Positions 26,800 through 64,000 of a DNA stretch of 64,000 bases are shown one piece after another. The position numbers were made by a program, and so were the translations under genes. The notes beneath the pieces are model-generated. The model was given only the letters and a program-made list of their open reading frames with translations, was not told the DNA's origin and made no database searches. Source of the DNA: Tubiluchus corallicola (lineage: Eukaryota; Priapulida; Priapulimorpha; Priapulimorphida; Tubiluchidae); assembly GCA_030141605.1 (NCBI GenBank), contig JAQGDQ010000033.1:124001-188000 (forward strand). The letters are read 5' to 3'. How positions within the stretch are numbered: position 1 is the stretch's first letter; each line of letters begins with the position of its first letter.

Positions 26800-27648
26800 T
26801 TAGTCTTCACTACCTGTAGTTAAGAGTTTAAGGCATTTTTGTAAGTTTTCAATGGCAGTTGTCGCATCTTCATATTGAATCGCACTTCCAGCAAATTTGC
26901 ACAGCTTTTGCGCTCTGGCAAAATCTGAGGGACCCAACTTTACACCCTCTAAAGGACTTGCAGTTTTTCTGGGTGCTGCAACTGGCTGCTGAGGTGTGTC
27001 GTTTGTAACCTGCGTTCCGCCTGGTATTCCGGAAACATCTGTCTGCGAAGGCTCAGAAGGTAAATATAAATCAATGTGTGGTTGGGATGAAGTTCCAGGT
27101 ACACCGCCTCCTGCTACTGGTATGTTAAATTCGTCATCTTCGCTATCAATTGGTCCAGGATGTGGTACTTCTCCATTTTTCAAACAATTATGTATGTAAG
27201 CAGCCTTCCATTTTGCATACTTGCGGTGATTTTCAATTTCATCTGTAAGTTCACCGAAATTCTGAAGGACATCAAACAGCATTCCAGCAGTGTAAAAAGA
27301 TTTTACAACATTCTTGTTAAAATGACATGCTCGATCTTCTGTATCTGCCCACAAAAACATTTTCAATGCATAATTTTCAACATGGGCTTGACCAACAACT
27401 TCACTACGAATTGACTCATTGTCCTGCAGCTGTTGCTTCATATTTTCCAGCAGGCTCATTAAACTTGATAAAAATGCATAACATTCTTTTGCTTTTGAGT
27501 TGATCTTCATGCCTAACTGCAGAGCATACAGTAAACAATAGTAAGTTATAACCAAATCACGTTTTTCATGTTCTGATGCAGTTTTTACGTAGTGCTGAAG
27601 TGGTTTGAATGTAGGTGGGATAGTTGGAAGATTAGCCATAGAAGCCAT
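26800..27648 (-). CDS. VTA1: vacuolar protein sorting-associated protein VTA1 (LIP5), intronless
   Basis: VTA1/LIP5 activates the AAA ATPase VPS4, which disassembles ESCRT-III during multivesicular body formation and membrane scission. One uninterrupted exon encodes 282 residues (human about 307). Residues 8-165 form the tandem-MIT N-terminal domain (PPTFKPLQHYVKTASEHEKR, then a CHFNKNVVKSFYTAGMLFDV block). Residues 165-235 are a Pro/Gly/Ser-rich linker. Residues 238-282 are the C-terminal VPS4-binding and dimerisation domain (GPSDFARAQKLCKFAGSAIQ, then YEDATTAIENLQ and LKLLTTG). No frame damage is visible. A single exon is unusual for this gene in animals and could reflect lineage-specific intron loss or a retrocopy that became the working gene. 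No poly(A) remnant or target duplication was seen next to it. Confidence 0.95.
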   Translation of the reverse strand: MASMANLPTIPPTFKPLQHYVKTASEHEKRDLVITYYCLLYALQLGMKINSKAKECYAFLSSLMSLLENMKQQLQDNESIRSEVVGQAHVENYALKMFLWADTEDRACHFNKNVVKSFYTAGMLFDVLQNFGELTDEIENHRKYAKWKAAYIHNCLKNGEVPHPGPIDSEDDEFNIPVAGGGVPGTSSQPHIDLYLPSEPSQTDVSGIPGGTQVTNDTPQQPVAAPRKTASPLEGVKLGPSDFARAQKLCKFAGSAIQYEDATTAIENLQKCLKLLTTGSED

Positions 27649-31693: not shown

Positions 31694-34600
31694 CTACAAA
31701 GATGAGTACAGAGATATTAATTTATCTTTATATTTACTGATAAGAAAATAAATTGATTTGTTTTTAATTTCTTGGGGAATAGAGTTCCTGATATGGGGGC
31801 CTTGATATTTAAGATAGCACTGGGCTTTGTTTGTATTATATCTTACTACACTCATACTGTTATTTGAGGCAAAACGAGTTTGATAATTGTGTAAAGCAGA
31901 AGATTCGCTCATGTATCCGTTAAACAGTTTTTGGCAGATCTCCATGTAAGTATTCCATACTCTAAATAAGGGAATACTAGACCATAGTATACTAATTTGA
32001 GTGTTGGAATATCTAAGTAGTGCCTAAGTTTAAAGAATATGCCAGCAAATTCAGCAATTTTACTTATTTTATATGTTAAGTGTTGAATATGTGAGTTCCA
32101 GTTTAACTTGTCATCAATGTGGATCCCTAAATATTTAATTTCATTTGATCGATCTATGTTAATATTGTTAAGTTTAATTCGGAAATTATTTACACCATTA
32201 TTTGCTCTGTGATTGGTAAAGAGAATAAACTTAGTTTTTTGATAATTGAGTGTTAATTTGTTTGCCTTTAGCCAGGTGTCAGTTTTGACAAGTTGGTCAT
32301 TAACAGTGTTTTCTAAATTTTTGATATTAGATGCGGCCATGAATAAGTTTGTATCATCTGCAAACACGCGCGTTTGAAGGCTAGAGCAGGTTGGTAGGTC
32401 ATTTACATAGAGTAAAATAATAAGGTTAAGCCTTGAGGGACCCCACATGTAATATTACACATTTTTGATTCAGTAGTTCCCATAGCAGTAAACTGTTTAC
32501 GATTGGAGAGATATGATCTAAAGAAGTTAAGTGCGTGTCATTTTATTTAGTTTGTCAATTAGTATACTATGTTGTACTGTATCAAAAGCTTTTTGTAAAT
32601 CTATAAAAATGCCACAGGTATACAATTTCTTATCCATGTTATCCAATATTCTGTCATTAACTCAGATGTGGCCAGGGCAGTCGAGTAGGTTTTGCGAATT
32701 GAAAATCTGTTAGTATCCTAAATTTAGTCAAAAAAATATTTAAACGATTATATATTAGTTTCTCGAAAATTTTGGCAAATGTGGAAAGTAGTGAAATGGG
32801 TCTGTAATTGCTCAAGTCATTAGATGAGTCAGATTTAAATATTGGTATAACTTTAGCTATTTTAAGTGCGCAAGAAAAGCAGCTTCAGTGATTGATTTGT
32901 TAAAGAGATCAGTCAGTATTGGAGCTAATGTCAGTTTGGCTAATTTGTAGTAGTACATTTGTATCTCATCAGGTCCCGGTGATTTATTGCTATTGAGATT
33001 CTTAAGTTCATTCAGAGTTTCTTGCACCAGAATAGGGTTAAAGAAAAACAATTTCTGAGCAGGATTATGTAGAAAGTCATTATGGTTTAGTTCGTTAGTT
33101 AGTTCGATTTTGGCAGCTAAATTGGCTCCAATTCTAGTAAAGTGATTATTAAGGATCTCACATATAACAGCTTCATTGTTTCTTTTAATACCGTTAATTT
33201 TTATTTTATTGGGCAGAATGGTAGCTTTATTTTTACGATTAGCTAAATCGTTAATAGTGGTCCATATCTTTCTTATGTTATTTTTATTATTTAGCAACAA
33301 TTTCTGGTAGTATTGCTTTTTAGCTTTTTCCTTTGTATGGTTTAATATATTCGAATAAGTTTTATGGTAATTTTGCTTATACAGACTATTAGAAAATTTG
33401 TGTGATTTGTACAGTTTACTTCTGATTTTTATTGATTTTAACAAACCTGGTGTTATCCATGGTTTTTTGTAAGTTCGTGTTTGTTTCCTAGATAGGGTTT
33501 TGTAATGGCAAGTGTTTGTTTGTAATCCTTTTAAAAGTTTCATAAAATATGTTAAATGCTTCATTGGAATATAAGTTGGAGAAATCAGTAGTATTTAAGG
33601 CTTCGTGCAGCTCAAGCGCATAGTTCTCTTTAACGAGTTAGTTTTATCCCTGATTGTAACCTTGTGAAATTTCCTATTGACTAAAGACTTTTTAATTATT
33701 GCAAAAACAGGAAGATGGTCAGCAACTTCGTAAAGTATTATGCCCGACGTTATGGGGTTAGTCAAGTCATTGCTGTATATATGATCAATTAATGTTTGAG
33801 ATTTACTAGTTATTCTTGTAGGTTTGGTAATTAACGGGATGAAGCAGTTGGCATAAATCATTGAGAGGTAGTTAGTTATATAGATTTTATTTTCATGATG
33901 AAGCAGATTTATATTGAAGTCACCACAGACAGCTTACCAGATTCATTGATTTTGTTTAATGTTATATCTAATTGTTCTTGAAAAGTTGGTACGTCTGTGT
34001 TTGGATGCCTATAAATGACTCCAAGTACAATATTTTTGGATTTTGTTTCGATTTTTAGCCAACAATTTTCAGCATGCACTTTTGTAGTGTTTGAGTGTGT
34101 ATTTATATTGTATTTGGTGGGCAGGACTAAAAATTATTTTTTCATTAATATATATTCCAACACCTCCTGCATTAGTTATTGAATTCTAATGGAGAAATGT
34201 ATAGCCTGGAATACTACATAGGAAGTGTCGATTACTTGATAATCTGGTCTCAGAGACTGCAATCAGGTCAGGCCATGATTGAAAGTTATACAATATATCT
34301 AAGAGATTACTAAAATGTTTATTTAAACTACTTAGATTAATATGGATCATTGATAAATCATTGGGGTTTATTTTATATATGGGGTCAGATTCTAGTTGAC
34401 ATAATTTGACATACTTGCTATCATACTGAATTGTGAAGTGATCTAGATCATTGTCCTCATTAGTGTCACACAGAAGAGCAGAATAGTTGAGTGAAGGTAG
34501 ATTAGTAAGATTTGCTAGTTTTGAATGGTCACCGAGTGCGTAACACAGTTCATCTTTATTCAAACTTTGGAATGGTAGTATGTTGTTAATACACTGCAAA

Positions 34601-34779
34601 CAATAAAAAGGCTCGTTAGTATTAGTTAGCATAGCAAACTCATCATTAGCTAGCAACGTGAATTTTTTGTGAATCGAATTATTACAGATACCACAAAAAA
34701 CTGCACATTGGTTATTTCGGCAAGGTTTTCTACATTGAACACACAAAAATTTTGTAGCCATGTTGAAATAAAAGCTCAA
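31694..34779 (-). pseudogene. LINE ORF2: PHD-like finger, endonuclease and reverse transcriptase, broken
   Basis: The N-terminal part has a C4HC3-like pattern (CVQC, CGIC, IHKK, CLQC) before the apurinic-like endonuclease start (LSMIHINLSSL ... WPDLIAVSETRLSS). Endonuclease and RT signatures follow with breaks: SDLTNP...ADHLPVF, NKSPGPDE, AFDTVQHSIL, LYVNDLP, FADDTNLF and KYLGIHIDDKLNW. The catalytic FADD is intact, but at least four disruptions across the frame make it non-functional. The PHD-like finger suggests a LINE lineage that carries chromatin-reader-type fingers. Confidence 0.85.
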
Positions 34780-34894
34780 GGGTATTTATATTCATAGTTT
34801 ATACGGTCAATCAACACACATGTTAGTTGGCACATTTTACTTAAATTTGTCAATATCAGCTTCAGATTCAATTTCAATGGACTGACTTTCCTCA

Positions 34895-43447: not shown

Positions 43448-44455
43448 ATGACAGAGCTGTCAGATTTCACCTCTTGGCGTCGAGTTTGGCTTCCTGACAT
43501 AGATACCACACCATGGAGAGCTTTTCAAAATATTGTGAATATTCAACATGATTGTAAAAGCGGCCCAAAACTAGTGAAACATTTATTCAGGGAAGACTCA
43601 TACTTAATTTTATGGTTCTACAACAGTTGTATGTGGAAATGTGCTGCATCCGCTGAAGAAATAATATTGTTGAATAAAAAACTCAATCCTTATCTAGAAA
43701 CACCAGTCAAAATTCTTTTGCGTGACATTGAGGCAACGCTGACTGATAATGCAAGTGATGTTCCTTTTAATGCTAAAGAGAGTGACGGCACTCTCTTGTT
43801 CAGTTTCCAGTCGAAAGTTGCAGGTGTAAAATTTGCTTGGGAATTCATTGCTGTGAAGCAAGACAACTCAATGGTGACAGATCATCTTGTTGTTCCATTA
43901 ATGGCAATGGTTAATCAACTAACTCAGCATCAAATGAAACTGCAAAAACTGCTGCAAGAAAAAGATGCAGAACTGCATGATCTCAGACAACAAAAATCGA
44001 ATGAAAGTTCAAAGGCCATTGTTCAAATAACAAACTATTCTCCTCAAAAAATAATAAATGAAACTGAACTTTTGTCAAAGTTAACAGAACTGTTTTCTTC
44101 TTCATGTTCTCAGGCTTTATATAAAGAAATTATGATTAGGAAAGCTTGGCTGTCTACGTTAACTGAAAATCAACTTCATTGTGATATAAGGCATGCAACA
44201 GATGATCCACCAGTGGCAGGCCCAAGTGACGAGTCATGGAATACTACATCACGATTACCAACATCTCTAATAAGCGAAGTATGCCAAACTGTTTCATTAT
44301 CACCAAGCAAATCTTCTGAGGTTAGTCCACACTCTGAAGGGAGCACAAGGAAACAAGAAAGTGAGGAAATACAGAGGCGGCAAAAACTTGAGGAGAAACT
44401 GGCAGCGGAAGAAGACAAAAAATTCAGAAAATGTAAGAAAAAGAAATTATTCTGA
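43448..44455 (+). CDS. NHEJ1: non-homologous end-joining factor 1 (XLF/Cernunnos), intronless
   Basis: XLF forms filaments with XRCC4 and stimulates DNA ligase IV during non-homologous end joining in the nucleus. One exon encodes 335 residues (human 299). Residues 1-140 fit the XLF head: WRAF, YLILWFYNSCMWKC (strand core), LLNKKLNPYLETPVKILL and GVKFAWEFIAV. Residues 145-185 are the coiled-coil stalk, starting DHLVVPLMAMVNQLTQHQMK. The tail is Ser/Pro-rich, then highly charged, and ends KFRKCKKKKLF, a basic cluster plus LF like the Ku-binding motif at the end of human XLF. An AATAAA signal sits at 44654-44659, about 200 nt after the stop, followed by GT-rich sequence. Vertebrate NHEJ1 has several introns; none is visible here. 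Intron loss or a functional retrocopy are both possible. Confidence 0.92.
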   Translation: MTELSDFTSWRRVWLPDIDTTPWRAFQNIVNIQHDCKSGPKLVKHLFREDSYLILWFYNSCMWKCAASAEEIILLNKKLNPYLETPVKILLRDIEATLTDNASDVPFNAKESDGTLLFSFQSKVAGVKFAWEFIAVKQDNSMVTDHLVVPLMAMVNQLTQHQMKLQKLLQEKDAELHDLRQQKSNESSKAIVQITNYSPQKIINETELLSKLTELFSSSCSQALYKEIMIRKAWLSTLTENQLHCDIRHATDDPPVAGPSDESWNTTSRLPTSLISEVCQTVSLSPSKSSEVSPHSEGSTRKQESEEIQRRQKLEEKLAAEEDKKFRKCKKKKLF

Positions 44456-56356: not shown

Positions 56357-59300
56357 ATGTTCCTGTTTTCCTACCTTATCGGCATTCTCGTGTACTTCTC
56401 ACCTGTTGTTTCACCTGGAGATCCTTTTTCTCAGGTAATATACAATCATAATGAAAGTGAAAATTTGTCTTTTGAGTGTTCAATACATTGTTGTTAGGAA
56501 GCTCGTAATTTACAGACGACTGTAATTAATATGTGACTCAGTTGTATTATACGTACTTTTTTAAGTGTGTCGCGAAAGTGGAACACCTTTTGTATGCCTG
56601 CAGCTGATTAGAGAATGTAACCGTACTATAAAAACGTGTTAACGAGGATTTGATGCCAAGCGATGACTGTCATTTCAGCCGCAGGACAATAGGTCTATCT
56701 GTCTCTGTCTGAAGATCTGTTGGCTTTGGCTTTCTCTAAGAAAAATTGTTCAAAAATATAGAAAGTTTTTGTTCTCAACCGCATTCATTGTAGATATCGA
56801 CTGTCTAATTAATTTGAAGAATCTTGTTTAGTTCTTATCAGTGAATGAAAATGCGGCTTTGGGGTGAATAGCTGAGTGGTCAAGGCGTGTGTTTGGTTGC
56901 ATGGTTAAGACATTGTCGCAGTGGACGAATGCTTGCAAAAAACAGCTTCTGAGTAATTTCAAGAGGCTGTGAGTGGGCTGTACAACTGAGTGTGTCAAAA
57001 GCGCTTCCAAAGTGTCTTAACAAGGTTTTAACCTTGTTCTGTCATAACTATCCAGTAGGCTGTGCCACTGAGGTTAGTAAGCATTGCTTTGCAGAATATG
57101 AAGCCGTACAAAAAGGGAAGCAAAGCATGTATAAAATAAATTCAGTCTTATAGACGTTTGCTTTTTATTTGCTCATTTTGCAGCACAAGCAGTTTAATTT
57201 ATGTGTTCTTGAACAAAGCAAAAAGAAAAACATGAAAACTACGTCCATTCATCCAGCTATTTTTCTGATGGATTCAACTAGGTTTTAATTCTTTTTATTT
57301 AAAAGCAGTTTGCTTATATATGTGTACTATAATTTACATCCTCCCAGATAACCTTTTAAAATTATTACCAGCAAAATTTTTTTTAAAATGGCTTACTTGC
57401 ACAAAAACACTAAATCTTTTGTACATTTTCACATTTTTTGATATGGGTTCTCATTCGTTTTCGTCATTTAAAAGGATGGACACAATTGCCCCATTTTAAC
57501 CTCCCAAATACGTCTTTGGAACGAAGAAAGGCACTTTTCAAGAGACAATGTTGAGCGACAAGGTCATATAACAATGGTGCTTAAGTATTTTGGCTTTTGG
57601 ACGAGTAAATAAAGCAGAGATTCTATTTAAAGCAAATATCAAATTAAAACAGTTACCATTTTTTCAGATTGAACCAATCGATTTTAGTGGTTTTATCCCG
57701 TTGTTTTCTTTGGCGTAAAACACTGATTTGCCTTCTTTAGTTTTATTTTTATAATGAGAACTTGTTTATTTTCAGTTGGTGGGGCAAGTAGATGATTGCA
57801 CATGTGATATAAACACGGTGGACCATTTTAACAATGTAAAGCTCTGGCCACTTTTAAAGCCTCTCATGGAACGTTATTATTTTCGATACTTTAAGGTACG
57901 CCTGGTAGTATTTGAAATGCAAACATAGTGCTTCTTTATATATGCACCGGCGGAGCACGAGGCACTGTGCAAGTTAACCCAAGTTATTGAAAAGGTTTTA
58001 AAGGAACCTAAGAAATTTTAATCAACAAAACTGTGCTTTTGTCCAGCCCATATTATGCCTTCTGAGACATTGTCAGTTTAAAGAAAACTAAAATTTATCT
58101 CTAAAGTTTCTTTACTGCTAAACTCCTCGTGCATTTTTATTTGATTCGAAACTTCGGAATGTTTAATAATTTAATTACAGTTTGCATGTCCTTAAAAACT
58201 GACCCAATGGGAAACAGTATAGAAAATTAGCAATCGAAATTGCCTTTACTGGATTTCTCTCTGATGACTTTGATGACTATGTTGTTTTCATGTTAGCTTG
58301 TGTAAATGTACTTTTATATGAATTTTAACATGAATTGAACACGGGAGTGCAAGTTCATTTTATGTAAAAAATTTCATGCCAAAATTAACAGCTTTACCAC
58401 TGTGTTGAAAGTAGCTTTCCTGATTATTTTCGTCAGCTAATTTGTCTAAGTTACGCTTCTTTGTTTTGTCATTATTGCAGGTAAATTTGAATCGAGAATG
58501 TCCATTTTGGCCAGATGATAGTCGTTGTGCATTTGGGGGTTGCCATGTAGAATCTTGCACAGAGGTAATTCTTGTGCTTGCAAACCAAAACCACCCATAA
58601 GTCGGCATAGCATACTTAAAATTACGTTATGCTTCAAAGTAGAATCTACCAAAAATTTGATCAAACGTCAGTTTTTTGCTTTTTATAAAAACAAATGCTA
58701 AACATATTGGAGTTTTATATTCTAGTTTCAAATTGTCAAATAAATGTTAAAAAATATCAAAAATCTAATTTTATAATCACGTACCCACTTTTATAGCTAG
58801 AAACTAGTAAGGCAATTGTAAAAATCTTGTACATTTTCAAACTCCAATAGTAGCTCGTGTAAGTTGTTATTTTGGTTTGGGTTTTTTATGTTGTCAAGCC
58901 CAGATCTTCGTCAGGAAGGCTCATTTACTGAATTTAAATATAATTTCAATGTGCTCTTGCAAAGTCCTTAGCAACCAACATTAAAGTTATGTTTTTCAGT
59001 GCGTAGATTATCTCAGCTTAGAAATAACGTGGAGTGATGAGGTTGGTATCAAAGTGATCCTCATGAAATGGAGGTTCAGGATATGTGAATAACCTAACTG
59101 TCGACTTATGGATGGCTTTGCTATGCAAGCACACATTTAGCTAATTTTATGAATTGCTCTTTTTCACAAAACAACTTTAGCAATACATTGATCGATGCAT
59201 AATAGCTTAGATTTGGAACTAATTTTTTATTTAACTGCTTTGAATTTTTCACAGGAAGAAGTTCCCAGTGGTTTACGAACAAATGGACAACAGCACAATA

Positions 59301-62300
59301 AAGTGAGCTGTAGTAGTTCCCTTTTAAAATCATAAATTGGTTCATTTTTTGCTTAATGTTTAATTCTGTCTTTAAAGAATGCTTTGTCTTGCAATTTCTT
59401 CTGGCACACACAACTAGAAAATGATTTTTTAAAACCTGTTCAATTTAGGCAACCCTGGGTGTTGTCTTTATGTGATGAAGGCAGGAGGATTTAAATACAA
59501 AATGTGTGAAACATTGAAATTTTTTCTTTATGTGTGCTACCTATTAATTTGTAAACCTGTTGTTGTGTAGCCATCTGATTTTAGTTGCAGTTTCATTTTC
59601 TGTGTGATGAGCTCTTTTCTCTATAGATGCTTATTGTTTGGGTATCAGTGAGTAGAGAATTTAGGATCAACCAACTGAGTACAGAAAATAATTCATTTGC
59701 CAGTGGACTAAATGGAGAGTGACTACTTTCCATTTAACTTGCTTTAGTTTAGCAGTTTATTGGCACATATTTTTTGCTCGACATTTATTTTTTCTCTAAT
59801 CTGACTTTTTTACAGTACTCGCAAAAAGCAAATGAAGATGGTCCATGTGAGGATGAAGATAAGGAATTGGGTGCAGTAGATACAAGCATAAGGTGTGAAA
59901 AATGAGGGTTTGTTTTTGTCATTCACGTAGACATGTGAACTGTACATTTTCATGAAATGATGAATGTTTGTTGTGAAAAATTATCGGAAGTAAAGATGGT
60001 TAAGAAAGTGAAAACAGTATGTCCACAGCCTACCATTATTTTCAAGTATTTCCTCAAAGTTGTTTTCTGTGCTTTTTATGTGCTGATCTTTACCATTTTT
60101 TTACAAAACTCAAAACTAGACAACTATAGATTTGAGTTGACAAATTTGGTATGTACCAGATACTGTTTTGCTATTATTTACCATTTGCAAGTTTTCTTGC
60201 ACTTAGAAGCTTTTTTTCCTATTCAAGATGATTACATTTTGGGGTCACACAATGACCAGAGCACTGCTTAGTGGAATTTAGTAAGCTAACGGTGACTGAT
60301 TGTTTCGTTGATGCATTTAGAAATTCCCCTACCACTGGACATGGGGTCACACAATGACCAGAGCACTGCTTAGTGGAATTTAGTAAGCTAACGGTGACTG
60401 ATTGTTTCGTTGATGCATTTAGAAATTCCCCTACCACTGGACACTGCATCACTTTAGGTTTATCTATACTTAAGAAGTTTACCTTGCCATTTTCCTGTCA
60501 ATTGAAATGCTAACCAGAGCTGATGCTGTTTATTTTTGGGATTTACTGCTTAGTATTCACTGTGGTTGCTCATCACAAGCAAGCAGACATTATTAATTTC
60601 TAATTCTTATTCACAGTGAAGAGAACAAAGAAGCATTTAAAGATTGGAAGGAGCATGATGAGGCGCATGATATATTCTGTCAAATAGATGGTATATTTAT
60701 ATGCTTAGTTTTTACTATGTAGGGCTTTGTGAGACAAGTTGTTCCCTTATTATTACTGCAAATTTGTACCTCCATATAAATTTTGTAATAAATTGTCTGT
60801 CACTTCTAGAGAAACATTTTTTACAAGATCACTTTTGTTTTAATGGAATAGATTGGGATTCATCTTTACTTTCAAGAACAATTTGGGCATTTTTATTTTA
60901 TAGGAATGAAATGCTTTTCTTATTTGTATTTACAAAAACTTAAAAAGCAGACCCTTTTTTGTGTGCATTTAATTTTTTTTATTTACACATTGATGAGTAT
61001 GAAATTGTAATGATATTCCAATCAGCATAAGCTTACTGATCTTTTTATTTACAAGACACATTGTAACTTTGTCATTAGCATATTTTCACACTTTTATTCT
61101 TATTACTAATAACAGACATGTAAACTTCATCATCTCTTACGTGGAATTTTGTGTTCAGATGATGCATCAGTTGATGCTGAATATGTGGATTTGCTACTAA
61201 ATCCTGAGCGATTCACTGGTTACAAAGGTGCATCACCGTGGAGAATATGGAAGGCTATATATGAAGAAAACTGTTTCAAGTACGTGATAATGTAAATGAC
61301 AGTGTATTATCAATGTTTAAACAAGTATTTTCTCTGTGTGATGAGTTATTTTCTCTACAGAACCTAAAATGTTAGGTATCAATGAGTAGAGAATTAGGAT
61401 CAACCAACTGATTACAGAGATGGTTCATGATTCCCAAATGTAAACAGGGGCATATTAACTAATAGGCTAACTAGGCTATAGGCTAGGGCGCCGAAGTTTG
61501 AGGTCGTTCACATTTTAGAAAAAATCTTATTCTCTTCGAAAAATGTGTATACTTTCATATTCATGTAAAGGGCAGATTTTATAACACACCGCGGGCAGTT
61601 ACTGAGAGTTGCTTTTATATAACTGCCACATAACGAACAGGTGCAAAGTATTACACAAGTTGCACAGCCTGCTTGAATATAAACGCTATGCACATACATA
61701 TAATTAATAATGAGCATGTAGGAACTAGGTTAATGGTGTTTCTAATACACCACAAGTAATTGTTTTATCTTCTCGTTACATAAATAACCATAAATTCACA
61801 ATAGAGATGGGCTGGACAGAACTATCAACCTAGGGCATCGTATATGCCGCTGCATGTAAATATGAATTTTCTGTAACTGTGATTCACTACTTTTAACTTC
61901 TGTTACTTGGTACTGTTTTCCCACTGATTCAGGTTTTTTCAGCTTCAATTTTACGCGGTTTTTGCAAATATAGGTTACCTATGCTATGCTATGTTTATGG
62001 TGGCTTTATCTACTTGTAATTATTTAATACAATTAATGCTAAAGGCTTTGTCAATACTAAAGTATCTAGTGAAAGAGAGTTTGATACAGTTATATGATTT
62101 GTTTTATAGGCCTGAGCCAGGTTATGGAAATTACGTCACATCTGACACAGTTGGAGGTATGTTTTCTTTATTATAATATATGTACGTGTCGTACACACTA
62201 GACACTAGCGCTTCACAGTGTGTGTTTCTCTAAACGATCTTAAATCGAGAAGTTGAACATATGCCAAAATGTCAAATTGCATTTTGATTATGTATTGTTT

Positions 62301-63656
62301 TGTATGTGAAATGCATTTGTCTTCAAGATGTTAAAGTGACTGAAGGACTGTTATAATGTGAAAGTATACCTTCTGTTATTTATCTTTTGACCTAATTTAC
62401 AGACATGTGTTTGGAAAAGCGAGCTTTCTTTCGAGCAGTATCCGGTTTGCATACCAGTATCAACGTTCACCTGTGTGCGGATTATTTATTCCCAAGTATG
62501 TAAAATTTAGTAAGTTGTCAGTCTTTTGATGACTTTAATCCTCAATACCTTTCCTTAAAGTTAAAATTGTATTGTAAAAACTTTCACCGAATAAATTTTT
62601 TGTTCTAATACCTGCAGTTAATATTCTAAGTATTGGATTCAAAATGAAATTCTTTTCTCAGTTTATTGTAGCATTTCGCATGGCTAAATCGTGCTGCACA
62701 TTTTACTGCAATTCTTTTACCAGGCTTGGATGGTGAAGGAAGATGGGGTTTAAATGTTGAAGAGTTCCGACGGAGATTTGATCCTGAATTTACCCAGGGT
62801 GAAGGACCACAACGATTACGAAATCTCTACTTTGTTTATTTGCTTGAATTGAGAGCATTAGCAAAGGCTGCGCCTTACTTCCAACAGGTGGTGACATTTA
62901 CAAATAATATTGAAATTAATCAAGAATTATCATTTTTTATATCTCTTTTGTTTTAGTGATAAACTGCAGTATTTTCTGGATGATGAGTTACTCTCTTTAC
63001 AGATCCTTTCATTAGGTATCAGTGAGTAGGGAATCTAGGATCAACCGACAGATTATTTCGCCATCTATTATATTATTTTATTGTTTTATTGCAATGCACA
63101 TTCCAGATAGGATTTTACACTGGTAATGAAGAGGAAGATGCAGTAGTACAGAAGGGTGTAAATGAAATTCTCAACAATATTAGGTAACTATAAATTGCTC
63201 TTAATGATACATTCTTACAGATGCCTACAAAACAAAGTGCAGAGCTTTTCTGAGCCAAGACTACGCTATTTGTTTGCTATTCAGTATTTTCTTTTGCATT
63301 TAATTTAGACATATTACTGCCTATCAATAAGTACTTTTAATTTTTACTGCCTATCAATAAGTACTTTTAATTTGTTTTGTCTCTGTGTCATGATATCTTT
63401 TAAAAAGTGGTTGTATAGATTTAACTTTATACGTTAGTTCTGGTGTTGCCATCCTTTGGTTTAATAATTTGTTTTTATTTACTATTTTAATTTATGTAGG
63501 TCATTCCCAAATCACTTCAATGAAAGTGAGATGTTTCAAGGTGATCCAAAAACTGCTATTAAGTTGAAGGAGGAGTTTCGTCTTCATTTTCTCAACATAT
63601 CGCGCATAATGGATTGTGTCGGCTGTGATAAATGTAGACTATGGGGAAAACTGCAG
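56357..63656 (+). CDS. ERO1: ERO1 endoplasmic reticulum oxidoreductase, partial (first 12 coding exons)
   Basis: ERO1 is a FAD-dependent ER-lumen oxidase that reoxidises protein disulphide isomerase and passes electrons to oxygen. Coding exons: 56357-56434, 57776-57895, 58481-58564, 59255-59302, 59816-59892, 60617-60690, 61159-61279, 62110-62156, 62403-62495, 62724-62887, 63107-63183, 63500-63656. All introns are GT-AG with matching phases, giving 380 codons, and the gene continues past the window. Exon 1 is a signal peptide. DDCTCD, CPFW, the shuttle and regulatory cysteines ([12 protein letters not shown]), [11 protein letters not shown], the C...[23 protein letters not shown]-contact region and the active site [16 protein letters not shown] are present. 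The N-terminal CFC of human ERO1A is replaced by PFS. The linker between ENCFK and the DMCLEKRAF block is shorter than in human. Vertebrate paralogues ERO1A and ERO1B cannot be distinguished here. Confidence 0.96.
56862..56960 (+). repeat. tRNA-like segment in ERO1 intron 1
   Basis: ATAGCTGAGTGGTCAAGGCG matches the A-box and D-arm of Leu/Ser-type tRNAs. The expected anticodon stem and B box are not clear in the following 60 nt. It is probably a SINE head or pseudo-tRNA, not a working gene. Confidence 0.35.
58658..59140 (+). mobile_element. interspersed repeat family R2, copy 3, in ERO1 intron 3
   Basis: It aligns with 28968-29552 in the same orientation, beginning near TCAAACGTCAG and ending GCAAGCACACATTTA. 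An internal deletion of about 90 bp relative to copy 1 lies near 58975. Confidence 0.75.
59595..59689 (+). ncRNA. C/D-box snoRNA candidate 1, ERO1 intron 4
   Basis: C box TGATGA lies at 59605-59610 and D box CTGA at 59675-59678, 74 nt from end to end. The flanks ATTTTCTGT (59595-59603) and ACAGAAAAT (59681-59689) form a perfect 9-bp terminal stem. Just before the D box, AGGATCAACCA is complementary to 11 nt at the universal 5' end of 18S rRNA (TGGTTGATCCT). By the D+5 rule the predicted 2'-O-methylation target is the first U after GG in that segment. An internal complement (TTCTCTA/TAGAGAA) is also present. Sense orientation inside a host intron is the usual animal snoRNA context. Confidence 0.68.
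60241..60443 (+). repeat. 102-bp tandem duplication in ERO1 intron 5
   Basis: Two adjacent copies start GGGGTCACACAATGACCAG at 60241 and 60343. They appear identical for almost the whole 102 bp. Because 102 is a multiple of three, an artefactual repetitive minus-strand frame spans both. Confidence 0.95.
61331..61420 (+). ncRNA. C/D-box snoRNA candidate 2, ERO1 intron 7
   Basis: C box TGATGA lies at 61339-61344 and D box CTGA at 61408-61411. TCTCTGT (61331-61337) pairs perfectly with ACAGAGA (61414-61420). Compared with candidate 1, one stem pair changes from T-A to C-G on both strands, a compensatory change. The antisense element AGGATCAACCA before the D box is identical to candidate 1. An internal 8-bp complement TTCTCTAC/GTAGAGAA is present. 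Confidence 0.7.
61445..61600 (+). mobile_element. possible hAT-type fragment in ERO1 intron 7
   Basis: A CAGGGGCATATTAAC start followed by a GGCTAGGGCGCCGAAGTTTG segment resembles the ends of many hAT or Academ-like elements. No matching right end was found, so it is a fragment at best. Confidence 0.3.
62971..63060 (+). ncRNA. C/D-box snoRNA candidate 3 (diverged), ERO1 intron 10
   Basis: It aligns with candidates 1 and 2. C box TGATGA is intact at 62981-62986 and the antisense AGGATCAACC is kept, but the D box reads CAGA (63049-63052) and the terminal stem is weak. The host intron is only 219 nt, and the element ends 46 nt before the 3' splice site. It may be a decaying copy or one with non-canonical boxes. 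Confidence 0.45.
63314..63373 (+). repeat. 30-bp tandem duplication in ERO1 intron 11
   Basis: TTACTGCCTATCAATAAGTA and the following ten bases occur twice in direct succession. Confidence 0.9.
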
Positions 63657-64000
63657 GTTAATAGCCATCTTCATTTTAACATAACGTTTATTATGTCAGT
63701 TTTGATTTTGCTGACTTTCGGTTTAAATACATAGTTCGTGTCCATTGTAGTTTATTAGTACTGGCAGTACTGCATTTCTCGTCAGCTGTTGTCATCCCAC
63801 TTACACATCTTAGGGTTAAATATTGGTGGCAAAATTGAAATATGCACTTGAAAATGTTTTGCTGTAAATAGCATAGAGGACGTTATTATTACCCGGAGAA
63901 CAGTATTATTACTGTATTACTAGTTAAAGATCCAGCACAGATTAGTAATTAAGAAATTTTTGTCCAAAAAAATTAACAAAATCAGTCGGTATGATTGTGC
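63657..64000 (+). other. start of ERO1 intron 12
   Basis: After the donor at 63657 (GTTAAT) no further exon is seen to the window edge. The rest of ERO1, including the region after the CxxCxxC site, lies outside. Confidence 0.7.

What the first reader, a model, noticed from the sequence alone, without database searches (positions are those of the whole stretch)
59595..59689. Intronic C/D-box snoRNA-like RNA with complementarity to the 5' end of 18S rRNA
The element has an exact C box, an exact D box, a perfect 9-bp terminal stem and an 11-nt antisense match to the universally conserved 18S start, placed directly before the D box as a guide should be. The predicted target is the U8 position by human 18S numbering. 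I know of no standard methylation there. The same 18S region pairs with U3 in the central pseudoknot, so a folding role competing with or aiding U3 is also conceivable.
Basis: partly seen in the sequence, partly recalled or inferred. Interest (0 to 1): 0.75.

Follow-up and report, generated by a model that had tools for sequence, protein, structure and literature searches.

The report
Intronic snoRNAs aimed at 18S start
Two intact copies and one decayed copy of a small methylation-guide RNA lie in introns of one gene of an unnamed, probably animal, genome and are aimed at the very start of the small ribosomal RNA, a spot that guide RNAs of many archaea and apparently one ciliate also target.

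Summary
Window 59595-59689 (c1) is a textbook box C/D RNA. A second intact copy (c2, 61331-61420) and a degenerate third (c3, about 62970-63062) lie in other introns of the same gene, ERO1; a genome search found only these three. Guide, C box, D box and internal stem are identical in c1 and c2 while flanks are not. The guide can pair with SSU rRNA nt 5-16 (11 Watson-Crick pairs plus one G.U), U8 facing guide position 5. The same guide and register appear in the Rfam consensus of Tetrahymena TtnuCD24 and in archaeal double-guide C/D sRNAs: 41 of 42 register-free matches in 415 archaeal genomes. Best reading: a canonical 2'-O-methylation guide for SSU U8. I recall no such mark in human or yeast, and a plant site table starts at Am28. 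A U3 or pseudoknot chaperone role is a weaker rival. Not shown: expression, fibrillarin binding, Um8, and this species' own 18S 5' end, which I could not find in the assembly. New member of a known kind with an unusual, testable target.

The parts
59595..59689 (+). c1: intact box C/D snoRNA (whole element incl. terminal stem)
   Evidence: the genome search gives itself plus two weaker paralogues
59595..59603 (+). c1 terminal stem, 5' arm ATTTTCTGT
   Evidence: 9 bp
59604..59610 (+). c1 C box GTGATGA
59617..59623 (+). c1 internal stem 5' arm TTCTCTA
59624..59652 (+). c1 apical part with K-turn-like D'/C' relic (TAGA ... AGTGAG)
   Evidence: K-turn reading is inference
59653..59659 (+). c1 internal stem 3' arm TAGAGAA
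59662..59674 (+). c1 guide TAGGATCAACCAA; positions 2-13 from the D box pair SSU nt 5-16, position 5 opposite U8
   Evidence: SSU 5' end recalled; 13 of 13 identical in c2
59675..59678 (+). c1 D box CTGA
59681..59689 (+). c1 terminal stem, 3' arm ACAGAAAAT
61331..61420 (+). c2: second intact copy (C box 61338-61344, D box 61408-61411, 7-bp terminal stem TCTCTGT/ACAGAGA, guide pairing 61395-61406)
   Evidence: (83% identity)
62970..63062 (+). c3: degenerate third copy (C box ATGATGA 62980-62986, D box mutated to CAGA 63049-63052, terminal stem lost, guide GGATCAACCGA)
   Evidence: (77% identity)
59255..63659 (+). ERO1 host gene, part: exons near 59255-59302, 59816-59893, 60618-60689, 61158-61280, 62672-62888 and 63501-63656, with small ones between; it appears to continue past the window end
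   Evidence: Pfam PF04137 in 3 of 3 ERO1 exons sent; other exons and all boundaries read by eye from translations

Best explanation
c1 and c2 are intron-encoded box C/D snoRNAs (c3 is a decaying copy), released from spliced ERO1 introns and assembled with the standard fibrillarin snoRNP. Their single functional guide, next to box D, pairs with the first 16 nt of 18S rRNA and places U8 opposite guide position 5 for 2'-O-methylation. The D'/C' side has been replaced by a stem-loop, so each RNA has one target. Sequence anatomy, conservation between paralogues and the cross-domain register are shown. Transcription, snoRNP assembly and Um8 are inferred. The duplex overlaps the U3 box A site, so methylation must come before U3 binding or after U3 release (inference).
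For: All C/D features are present; 0.1 such combinations expected per window. c1 and c2 are identical at guide 13/13, C box 7/7, D box 4/4 and internal stem 14/14, with terminal-stem arms 7/9 and 7/9, against flanks 3/10 and 5/11. One terminal-stem pair changed on both sides (U-A/C-G) between c1 and c2. Three of three genomic copies found lie in ERO1. The same guide and register can be read in the Rfam consensus of TtnuCD24, RF02300. In the GTDB contigs, 30 of 55 pattern hits have C-to-guide gap 1 and all 30 are archaeal (titles; four genus names looked up); 28 of these 30 have a second C/D half (one mismatch allowed in the C box; 19 of 30 with none), while 0 of the other 25 hits, all bacterial by title and with other gaps, has one. 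With both gaps free, 18 of 19 matches (300 genomes) and 23 of 23 matches (115 genomes) have the U8 register; 40 of these 41 also have the second half, and the one off-register match does not. The reversed control gives 0 in both sets. The archaeal 16S start CCGGTTGATCCTGCC was found in 8 of 10 genomes tested.
Against: No RNA data. The own 18S 5' end was not found: 0 hits for the 18S start pattern, one hit with one mismatch that is not SSU, and the two rDNA fragments read lack the 5' part. No Rfam family reaches gathering score in the window, and the TtnuCD24 matches are not significant as family matches (E 2.6, 0.96 and 3.1). The fold of c1 is no better than shuffles (z -0.68; c2 z -2.57; c3 z 0.43). 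Covariation among 3 copies is weak: 256 of 500 shuffles score as high. Guide position 1 mismatches C4. Most archaeal genomes sampled (282 of 300 and 92 of 115) have no match. No Nm at SSU nt 1-27 is listed for plants.
Confidence: 0.75

Rival explanations
1. A C/D snoRNP that pairs with the 18S start but does not methylate: it acts as a folding chaperone, covering the 5' strand of the central pseudoknot or competing with or handing over to U3.
For: The duplex (SSU nt 5-16) lies almost wholly inside the U3 box A'/A site (18S nt 6-22; PMC4340053 passages). No Nm at nt 1-27 in the plant column of PMC11542601, nor any I recall in human or yeast. Non-methylating C/D RNAs exist (TtnuCD32, PMC6315972 passages; snR190, PMC9196750 passages).
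Against: A chaperone would not need one exact register to box D, yet 41 of 42 register-free archaeal matches, the TtnuCD24 consensus, c1 and c2 all place U8 at position 5. Archaea have no U3 (recalled).
Confidence: 0.14
2. A real snoRNA family that is no longer expressed here (pseudogenes) or that methylates another RNA in this species.
For: c3 is clearly decaying (D box CAGA, terminal stem lost). The own 18S start could not be checked.
Against: c1 and c2 keep guide, boxes and stems while flanks have diverged; the guide matches a very conserved stretch of SSU rRNA (recalled).
Confidence: 0.07
3. Chance resemblance to a C/D snoRNA in AT-rich intron sequence, spread by local duplication.
For: All three copies sit within 3.5 kb.
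Against: 0.1 C/D-plus-stem combinations expected per window, and a 12-bp match to the SSU start in guide register is additional. Conservation between c1 and c2 is highest in the functional parts.
Confidence: 0.02
4. A cryptic splicing element: TTTCTCTACAG (3'-splice-like) and AG|GTATCAGTGAG (5'-splice-like) flank 13-15 nt, so the unit could be a micro-exon.
For: Such motifs can be read by eye in c2 and, less exactly, in c3.
Against: The would-be exon lies in the least conserved inner part (apical 14/23 between c1 and c2) and changes length (15/15/13 by eye). The motifs pair with each other as the internal stem. It does not explain the C/D boxes, stem or guide.
Confidence: 0.02

Closest known systems
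Box C/D snoRNAs, intron-encoded (general class)
   Same: C box, D box, terminal stem, antisense element ending one nt before box D, host intron, paralogues in other introns of the same gene
   Different: Single guide; the D'/C' side is a conserved stem-loop; target U8 precedes the first plant site listed (Am28) and is not among human or yeast sites that I recall
Tetrahymena TtnuCD24 (Rfam RF02300)
   Same: Consensus has GGAUCAACCA + 1 nt + CUGA, so the same target U8 in the same register
   Different: The element lies before what I read as box D' (not D) in a 58-nt RNA; overall similarity is below threshold (14.1-17.6 bits against gathering 75, E 0.96-3.1), so not a member of that Rfam family. 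Its published target annotation was not seen (the one id I tried was not held)
Archaeal double-guide C/D sRNAs aimed at the 16S start (Thermococcus and several TACK lineages)
   Same: Same guide core and register to SSU U8
   Different: Short double guides (archaeal C/D sRNAs are about 50-70 nt; PMC7994747 passage) with the guide as D' or D. By eye I saw no likeness outside guide and boxes; homology was not tested
U3 snoRNA box A
   Same: Also carries GGAUCA (recalled) and pairs with the 18S start (nt 6-22)
   Different: U3 pairs through its 5' domain, not a D-box guide, and does not methylate (recalled)

Membership tests
Box C/D snoRNA | C box RUGAUGA and D box CUGA brought together by a terminal stem | tested here: met
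   c1 and c2 exact, stems 9 and 7 bp; c3 fails at D box and stem
Box C/D snoRNA | Antisense element of 10 nt or more just upstream of D or D', complementary to an rRNA, with the target opposite the fifth nt upstream of the box | tested here: met
   12-bp duplex with the recalled standard SSU start, position 5 opposite U8; not with the species' own 18S
Box C/D snoRNA | Complementarity to the 18S of the same species | tested here: inconclusive
   18S start not found in the assembly; two rDNA fragments hold only 3' parts; the RF01960 family search did not complete
Box C/D snoRNA | Intronic origin in a protein-coding host gene, same strand | tested here: met
   ERO1 exons flank each copy on the + strand (Pfam for 3 exons; the others by eye)
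Box C/D snoRNA | Stable small RNA bound by fibrillarin, NOP56, NOP58 and 15.5K | not testable with these tools
   no expression or IP data
Box C/D snoRNA | Internal C'/D' motif | tested here: inconclusive
   TAGA/CAGA and GUGAG/AUGAG flank an apical hairpin and are closed by a 7-bp stem; K-turn-like by inspection, degenerate
Rfam RF02300 TtnuCD24 | Score at or above the gathering cut-off (75 bits) | tested here: not met
   17.6 and 14.1 bits for c1, 16.5 bits for c2
SSU-U8 2'-O-methylation guides (functional grouping of mine, not a family) | GGATCAACC(A/G)N directly before CTGA | tested here: met
   c1 and c2 exact; c3 has CAGA

The most novel reading that the evidence does not exclude
SSU U8, in the first helix beside the central pseudoknot, is an ancient 2'-O-methylation site written by guide RNAs in archaea, ciliates and at least one probable animal lineage. 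It was kept or repeatedly re-invented, is missing in the well-mapped models (human and yeast by recall, plants by one table), and is partly hidden from mapping because it lies in the first 20 nt of the RNA. In this lineage the methylating snoRNP must share its site with U3, making it a candidate timing step in pseudoknot formation.
Probability: 0.3. Interest if true: 0.7.

Novelty: new member of a known kind. Interest (0 to 1): 0.48.

Why it matters
If U8 is methylated here, one of the most conserved stretches of rRNA carries a mark that I do not know from human or yeast and that a plant site table lacks, in a helix that U3 must occupy and then leave for the central pseudoknot to form. Finding the same guide in the same register in archaea and a ciliate gives a concrete test of whether rRNA guide targets persist or are reinvented across domains. 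TtnuCD24 and a Thermococcus sRNA could be deleted in laboratory strains.

Tried and rejected
Rfam membership: 0 families at gathering score in the window. Low-score hits such as DdR17, sca_ncR26, sroD and ManX_thermometer were treated as chance. Two other genomic hits of the guide+box pattern (L001, L002) show no C/D snoRNA context by eye in the 300 nt read of each. No further copy was found in L063, which runs from window 63500 to 9.4 kb past the window end. A D' guide was considered and dropped because the segment is engaged in the conserved internal stem. The structure test with 3 sequences is weak and is not used as proof. The 102-bp tandem repeat nearby was checked: no similar copy found elsewhere, fold no better than shuffles. 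Papers: sequence searches for the guide gave 1 paper, which only uses a probe against the 18S start (PMC6124571; listing and passages), and 0 papers. Searches for '18S-U8', 'SSU-U8', '18S Um8', 'Um8 18S' gave 0 papers. Sites of archaeal 16S methylation near the 5' end were not named in the passages and sections read of PMC4644070 and PMC7994747; their supplements were not readable, so U8 may well be listed there. Passages of PMC11698992 said nothing on U8. Listings led to the papers cited; the listing was not followed. The id I tried for the Tetrahymena macronuclear ncRNA paper was not held. Eukaryote genomes other than the window's own could not be searched, so conservation in relatives is untested.

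Full report
Observation. The sequence at 59595-59689 is as described: terminal stem ATTTTCTGT/ACAGAAAAT, C box GTGATGA, D box CTGA, and GGATCAACCAA ending right before the D box. In 60 first-order Markov shuffles of the window, an RTGATGA box, a CTGA box 35-100 nt on and a stem of 6 bp or more (wobbles allowed) occur on average 0.1 times per 64 kb on both strands, and 0.017 times with a stem of 9 bp or more. The real window has three such places: c1 (9 bp), c2 (7 bp) and an unrelated minus-strand place with 6 bp that I take for chance.

A family of three in one gene. A genome-wide search for the guide plus box found a second copy nearby, and a repeat search found a third, partly matching one. 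They are c1 at 59595-59689, c2 at 61331-61420 and c3 at about 62970-63062. A DNA search of the 343.5-Mb genome with c1 plus short flanks returned these three places only, at 100, 83 and 77% identity (the tool calls its counts lower bounds), and the stretch to 9.4 kb past the window end has no fourth. The surrounding exons are ERO1, endoplasmic reticulum oxidoreductin 1: three of three ERO1 exons sent to Pfam match PF04137, and further exons were read by eye. Each copy lies in a different intron, in the sense orientation.

Which organism. Not named. It is a eukaryote (introns; SSU_rRNA_eukarya match). I take it for an animal: its VTA1 scores 245 bits against the closest solved VTA1-homolog chain (2LXL, human by recall) and 34.7 bits against the best chain named plain VTA1 (5UIE, yeast by recall). 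This is a guess, not a placement.

What is kept. Between c1 and c2 the guide (13 of 13), C box (7/7), D box (4/4) and both arms of an internal stem (14/14) are identical. The terminal-stem arms agree at 7/9 and 7/9, the apical part at 14/23, and the flanks at only 3/10 and 5/11. The terminal stem changed at one pair on both sides (U-A against C-G). With three sequences this is thin: shuffled controls reach the same covariation score in 256 of 500 cases, and I do not rest the case on it. Cells paired are 88.7% for the structure against 37-65% for slid versions, but the structure was drawn from c1. Folding energies are unremarkable for c1 and c3 (z -0.68 and 0.43) and good for c2 (z -2.57). Copy c3 has D box CAGA, a guide change A to G and no terminal stem, and looks like a dying copy. 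The internal stem TTCTCTA/TAGAGAA closes a hairpin with TAGA/CAGA opposite GUGAG/AUGAG. I read this as a degenerate D'/C' kink-turn whose guide has become a stem (inference), leaving one guide per RNA.

Target. Against the standard eukaryotic SSU start (recalled), guide positions 2-13 pair with nt 5-16 through 11 Watson-Crick pairs and one G.U. Position 1 mismatches C4, and position 5 faces U8. The species' own 18S start could not be read. The exact start pattern has no match, one near match is not SSU, and the two rDNA fragments read (contigs C1203 and C1972; SSU model RF01960 matched, 5.8S on one) hold only 3' parts of 18S. The family search for 18S did not complete. The match to the own 18S is therefore untested, although this is among the most conserved stretches of SSU rRNA (recalled).

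The same guide elsewhere. The Rfam consensus of Tetrahymena TtnuCD24 (RF02300) contains GGAUCAACCA-C-CUGA. It came up in all three permissive scans of c1 and c2, but with scores far below the family cut-off (17.6, 16.5 and 14.1 against 75 bits; E 2.6, 0.96 and 3.1), because little more than the guide and the box is shared. Counting from CUGA, its position 5 also faces U8. A scan of the GTDB species contigs for TGATGA, 0-14 nt, GGATCAACC(A/G)N, CTGA gave 55 hits. Thirty have a gap of exactly one and all thirty are archaeal (two of them from one assembly; four genus names were looked up). The other 25 are bacterial by title, with gaps 0, 2, 3, 5 or 8-14. Bacteria have no C/D RNAs (recalled) and so serve as background. 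In 28 of the 30 archaeal loci a second C/D half lies at the canonical distance, allowing one mismatch in its C box (19 of 30 allowing none); the same test finds it in 0 of the 25 bacterial loci. The U8 guide is in the D' place in 9 and in the D place in 19 of the 28. These are therefore double-guide C/D sRNAs by anatomy.

Register. Because that pattern fixed the register, I repeated the search with both gaps free (0-8). In 300 genomes of one archaeal phylum there are 19 matches in 18 genomes, 18 of the 19 in the U8 register; in 115 genomes of another there are 23 matches in 23 genomes, all in that register; the built-in reversed control found none in either set. Six genomes of the first set and one of the second had been picked by me from the hits; without them the counts are 12 of 13 and 22 of 22. 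Of the 41 in-register matches 40 have the second C/D half; the one off-register match has not. Most genomes sampled (282 of 300 and 92 of 115) have no match, so the guide is widespread but far from universal, or is diverged elsewhere. The 16S start CCGGTTGATCCTGCC was found in 8 of 10 of the sRNA-bearing genomes tested. By eye the companion guides differ between lineages, which suggests repeated re-use of the site rather than one conserved RNA.

Mechanism. The simplest account is the standard one: splicing and debranching release the intron, the C/D core binds 15.5K, NOP56, NOP58 and fibrillarin, the guide pairs with pre-18S nt 5-16, and U8 is 2'-O-methylated (established C/D pathway; not tested here). 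The shared register to the nucleotide in three settings favours methylation over a mere chaperone. The site overlaps U3 box A'/A, which pairs with 18S nt 6-22, and the 5' strand of the central pseudoknot (PMC4340053, passages read). The snoRNP would have to act before U3 or after its removal, so a side effect on timing is plausible but untested.

What is known. In the table of PMC11542601 (passages read) the first plant 18S site is Am28. The human, yeast, algal and archaeal columns list only sites shared with plants, so they do not test U8 there; that human and yeast lack it is recalled. No held paper uses the four names tried for U8 in SSU. PMC4644070 and PMC7994747 (sections and passages) describe archaeal 16S hotspots in helices 3, 18 and 27 and do not mention U8 in what I read; the site lists are in supplements I could not open, so the archaeal guide may be on record. 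In RiboMeth-seq, 3' read ends within the first 20 nt of an RNA are depleted (PMC7758197, legend passage), so a mark at U8 could be under-reported.

Verdict. A C/D snoRNA family of ordinary build with an unusual target. It is a new member of a known kind; the interest lies in the target and in its recurrence across domains. The confidence given is for the whole statement including U8 methylation; that c1 and c2 are C/D snoRNA genes I hold at above 0.9.

Noticed in passing
60240-60443: Perfect tandem duplication of a 102-bp unit in an ERO1 intron; no similar copy found elsewhere in the genome and no unusual fold.
   Followed up: partly
63314-63373: Perfect tandem pair of a 30-bp unit in another ERO1 intron.
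   Followed up: no
42939-42861 (- strand): C/D-like place with a 6-bp stem (wobbles allowed); I take it for chance.
   Followed up: no
26803-27645 (- strand): VTA1-like gene in one open frame (Pfam Vta1 and Vta1_C); much closer to VTA1-homolog chains 2LXL/2LXM/4TXP than to chains named plain VTA1.
   Followed up: partly
43448-44455 (+ strand): XLF/NHEJ1-like gene in one open frame (Pfam XLF and XLF_CC).
   Followed up: partly
31909-34785 (- strand): ORFs reading like a non-LTR retrotransposon (endonuclease and reverse transcriptase), by eye from translations only.
   Followed up: no
L098 and L099 (G000:C1203 and G000:C1972): Fragmentary 18S copies, 3' parts only in the stretches read; one with 5.8S. 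A full rDNA unit was not found.
   Followed up: partly
L001:1501-1515: A stray 15-nt TGGTTGATCCTGCCA identical to the 18S start, with no rDNA around it by eye.
   Followed up: no
RF02300 consensus: The D-box side of TtnuCD24 (CUACUGGC before GACUGA) looks complementary to SSU nt 16-23 of the recalled standard start, so that RNA may guide two sites within the first 25 nt; not checked against the real Tetrahymena 17S.
   Followed up: no
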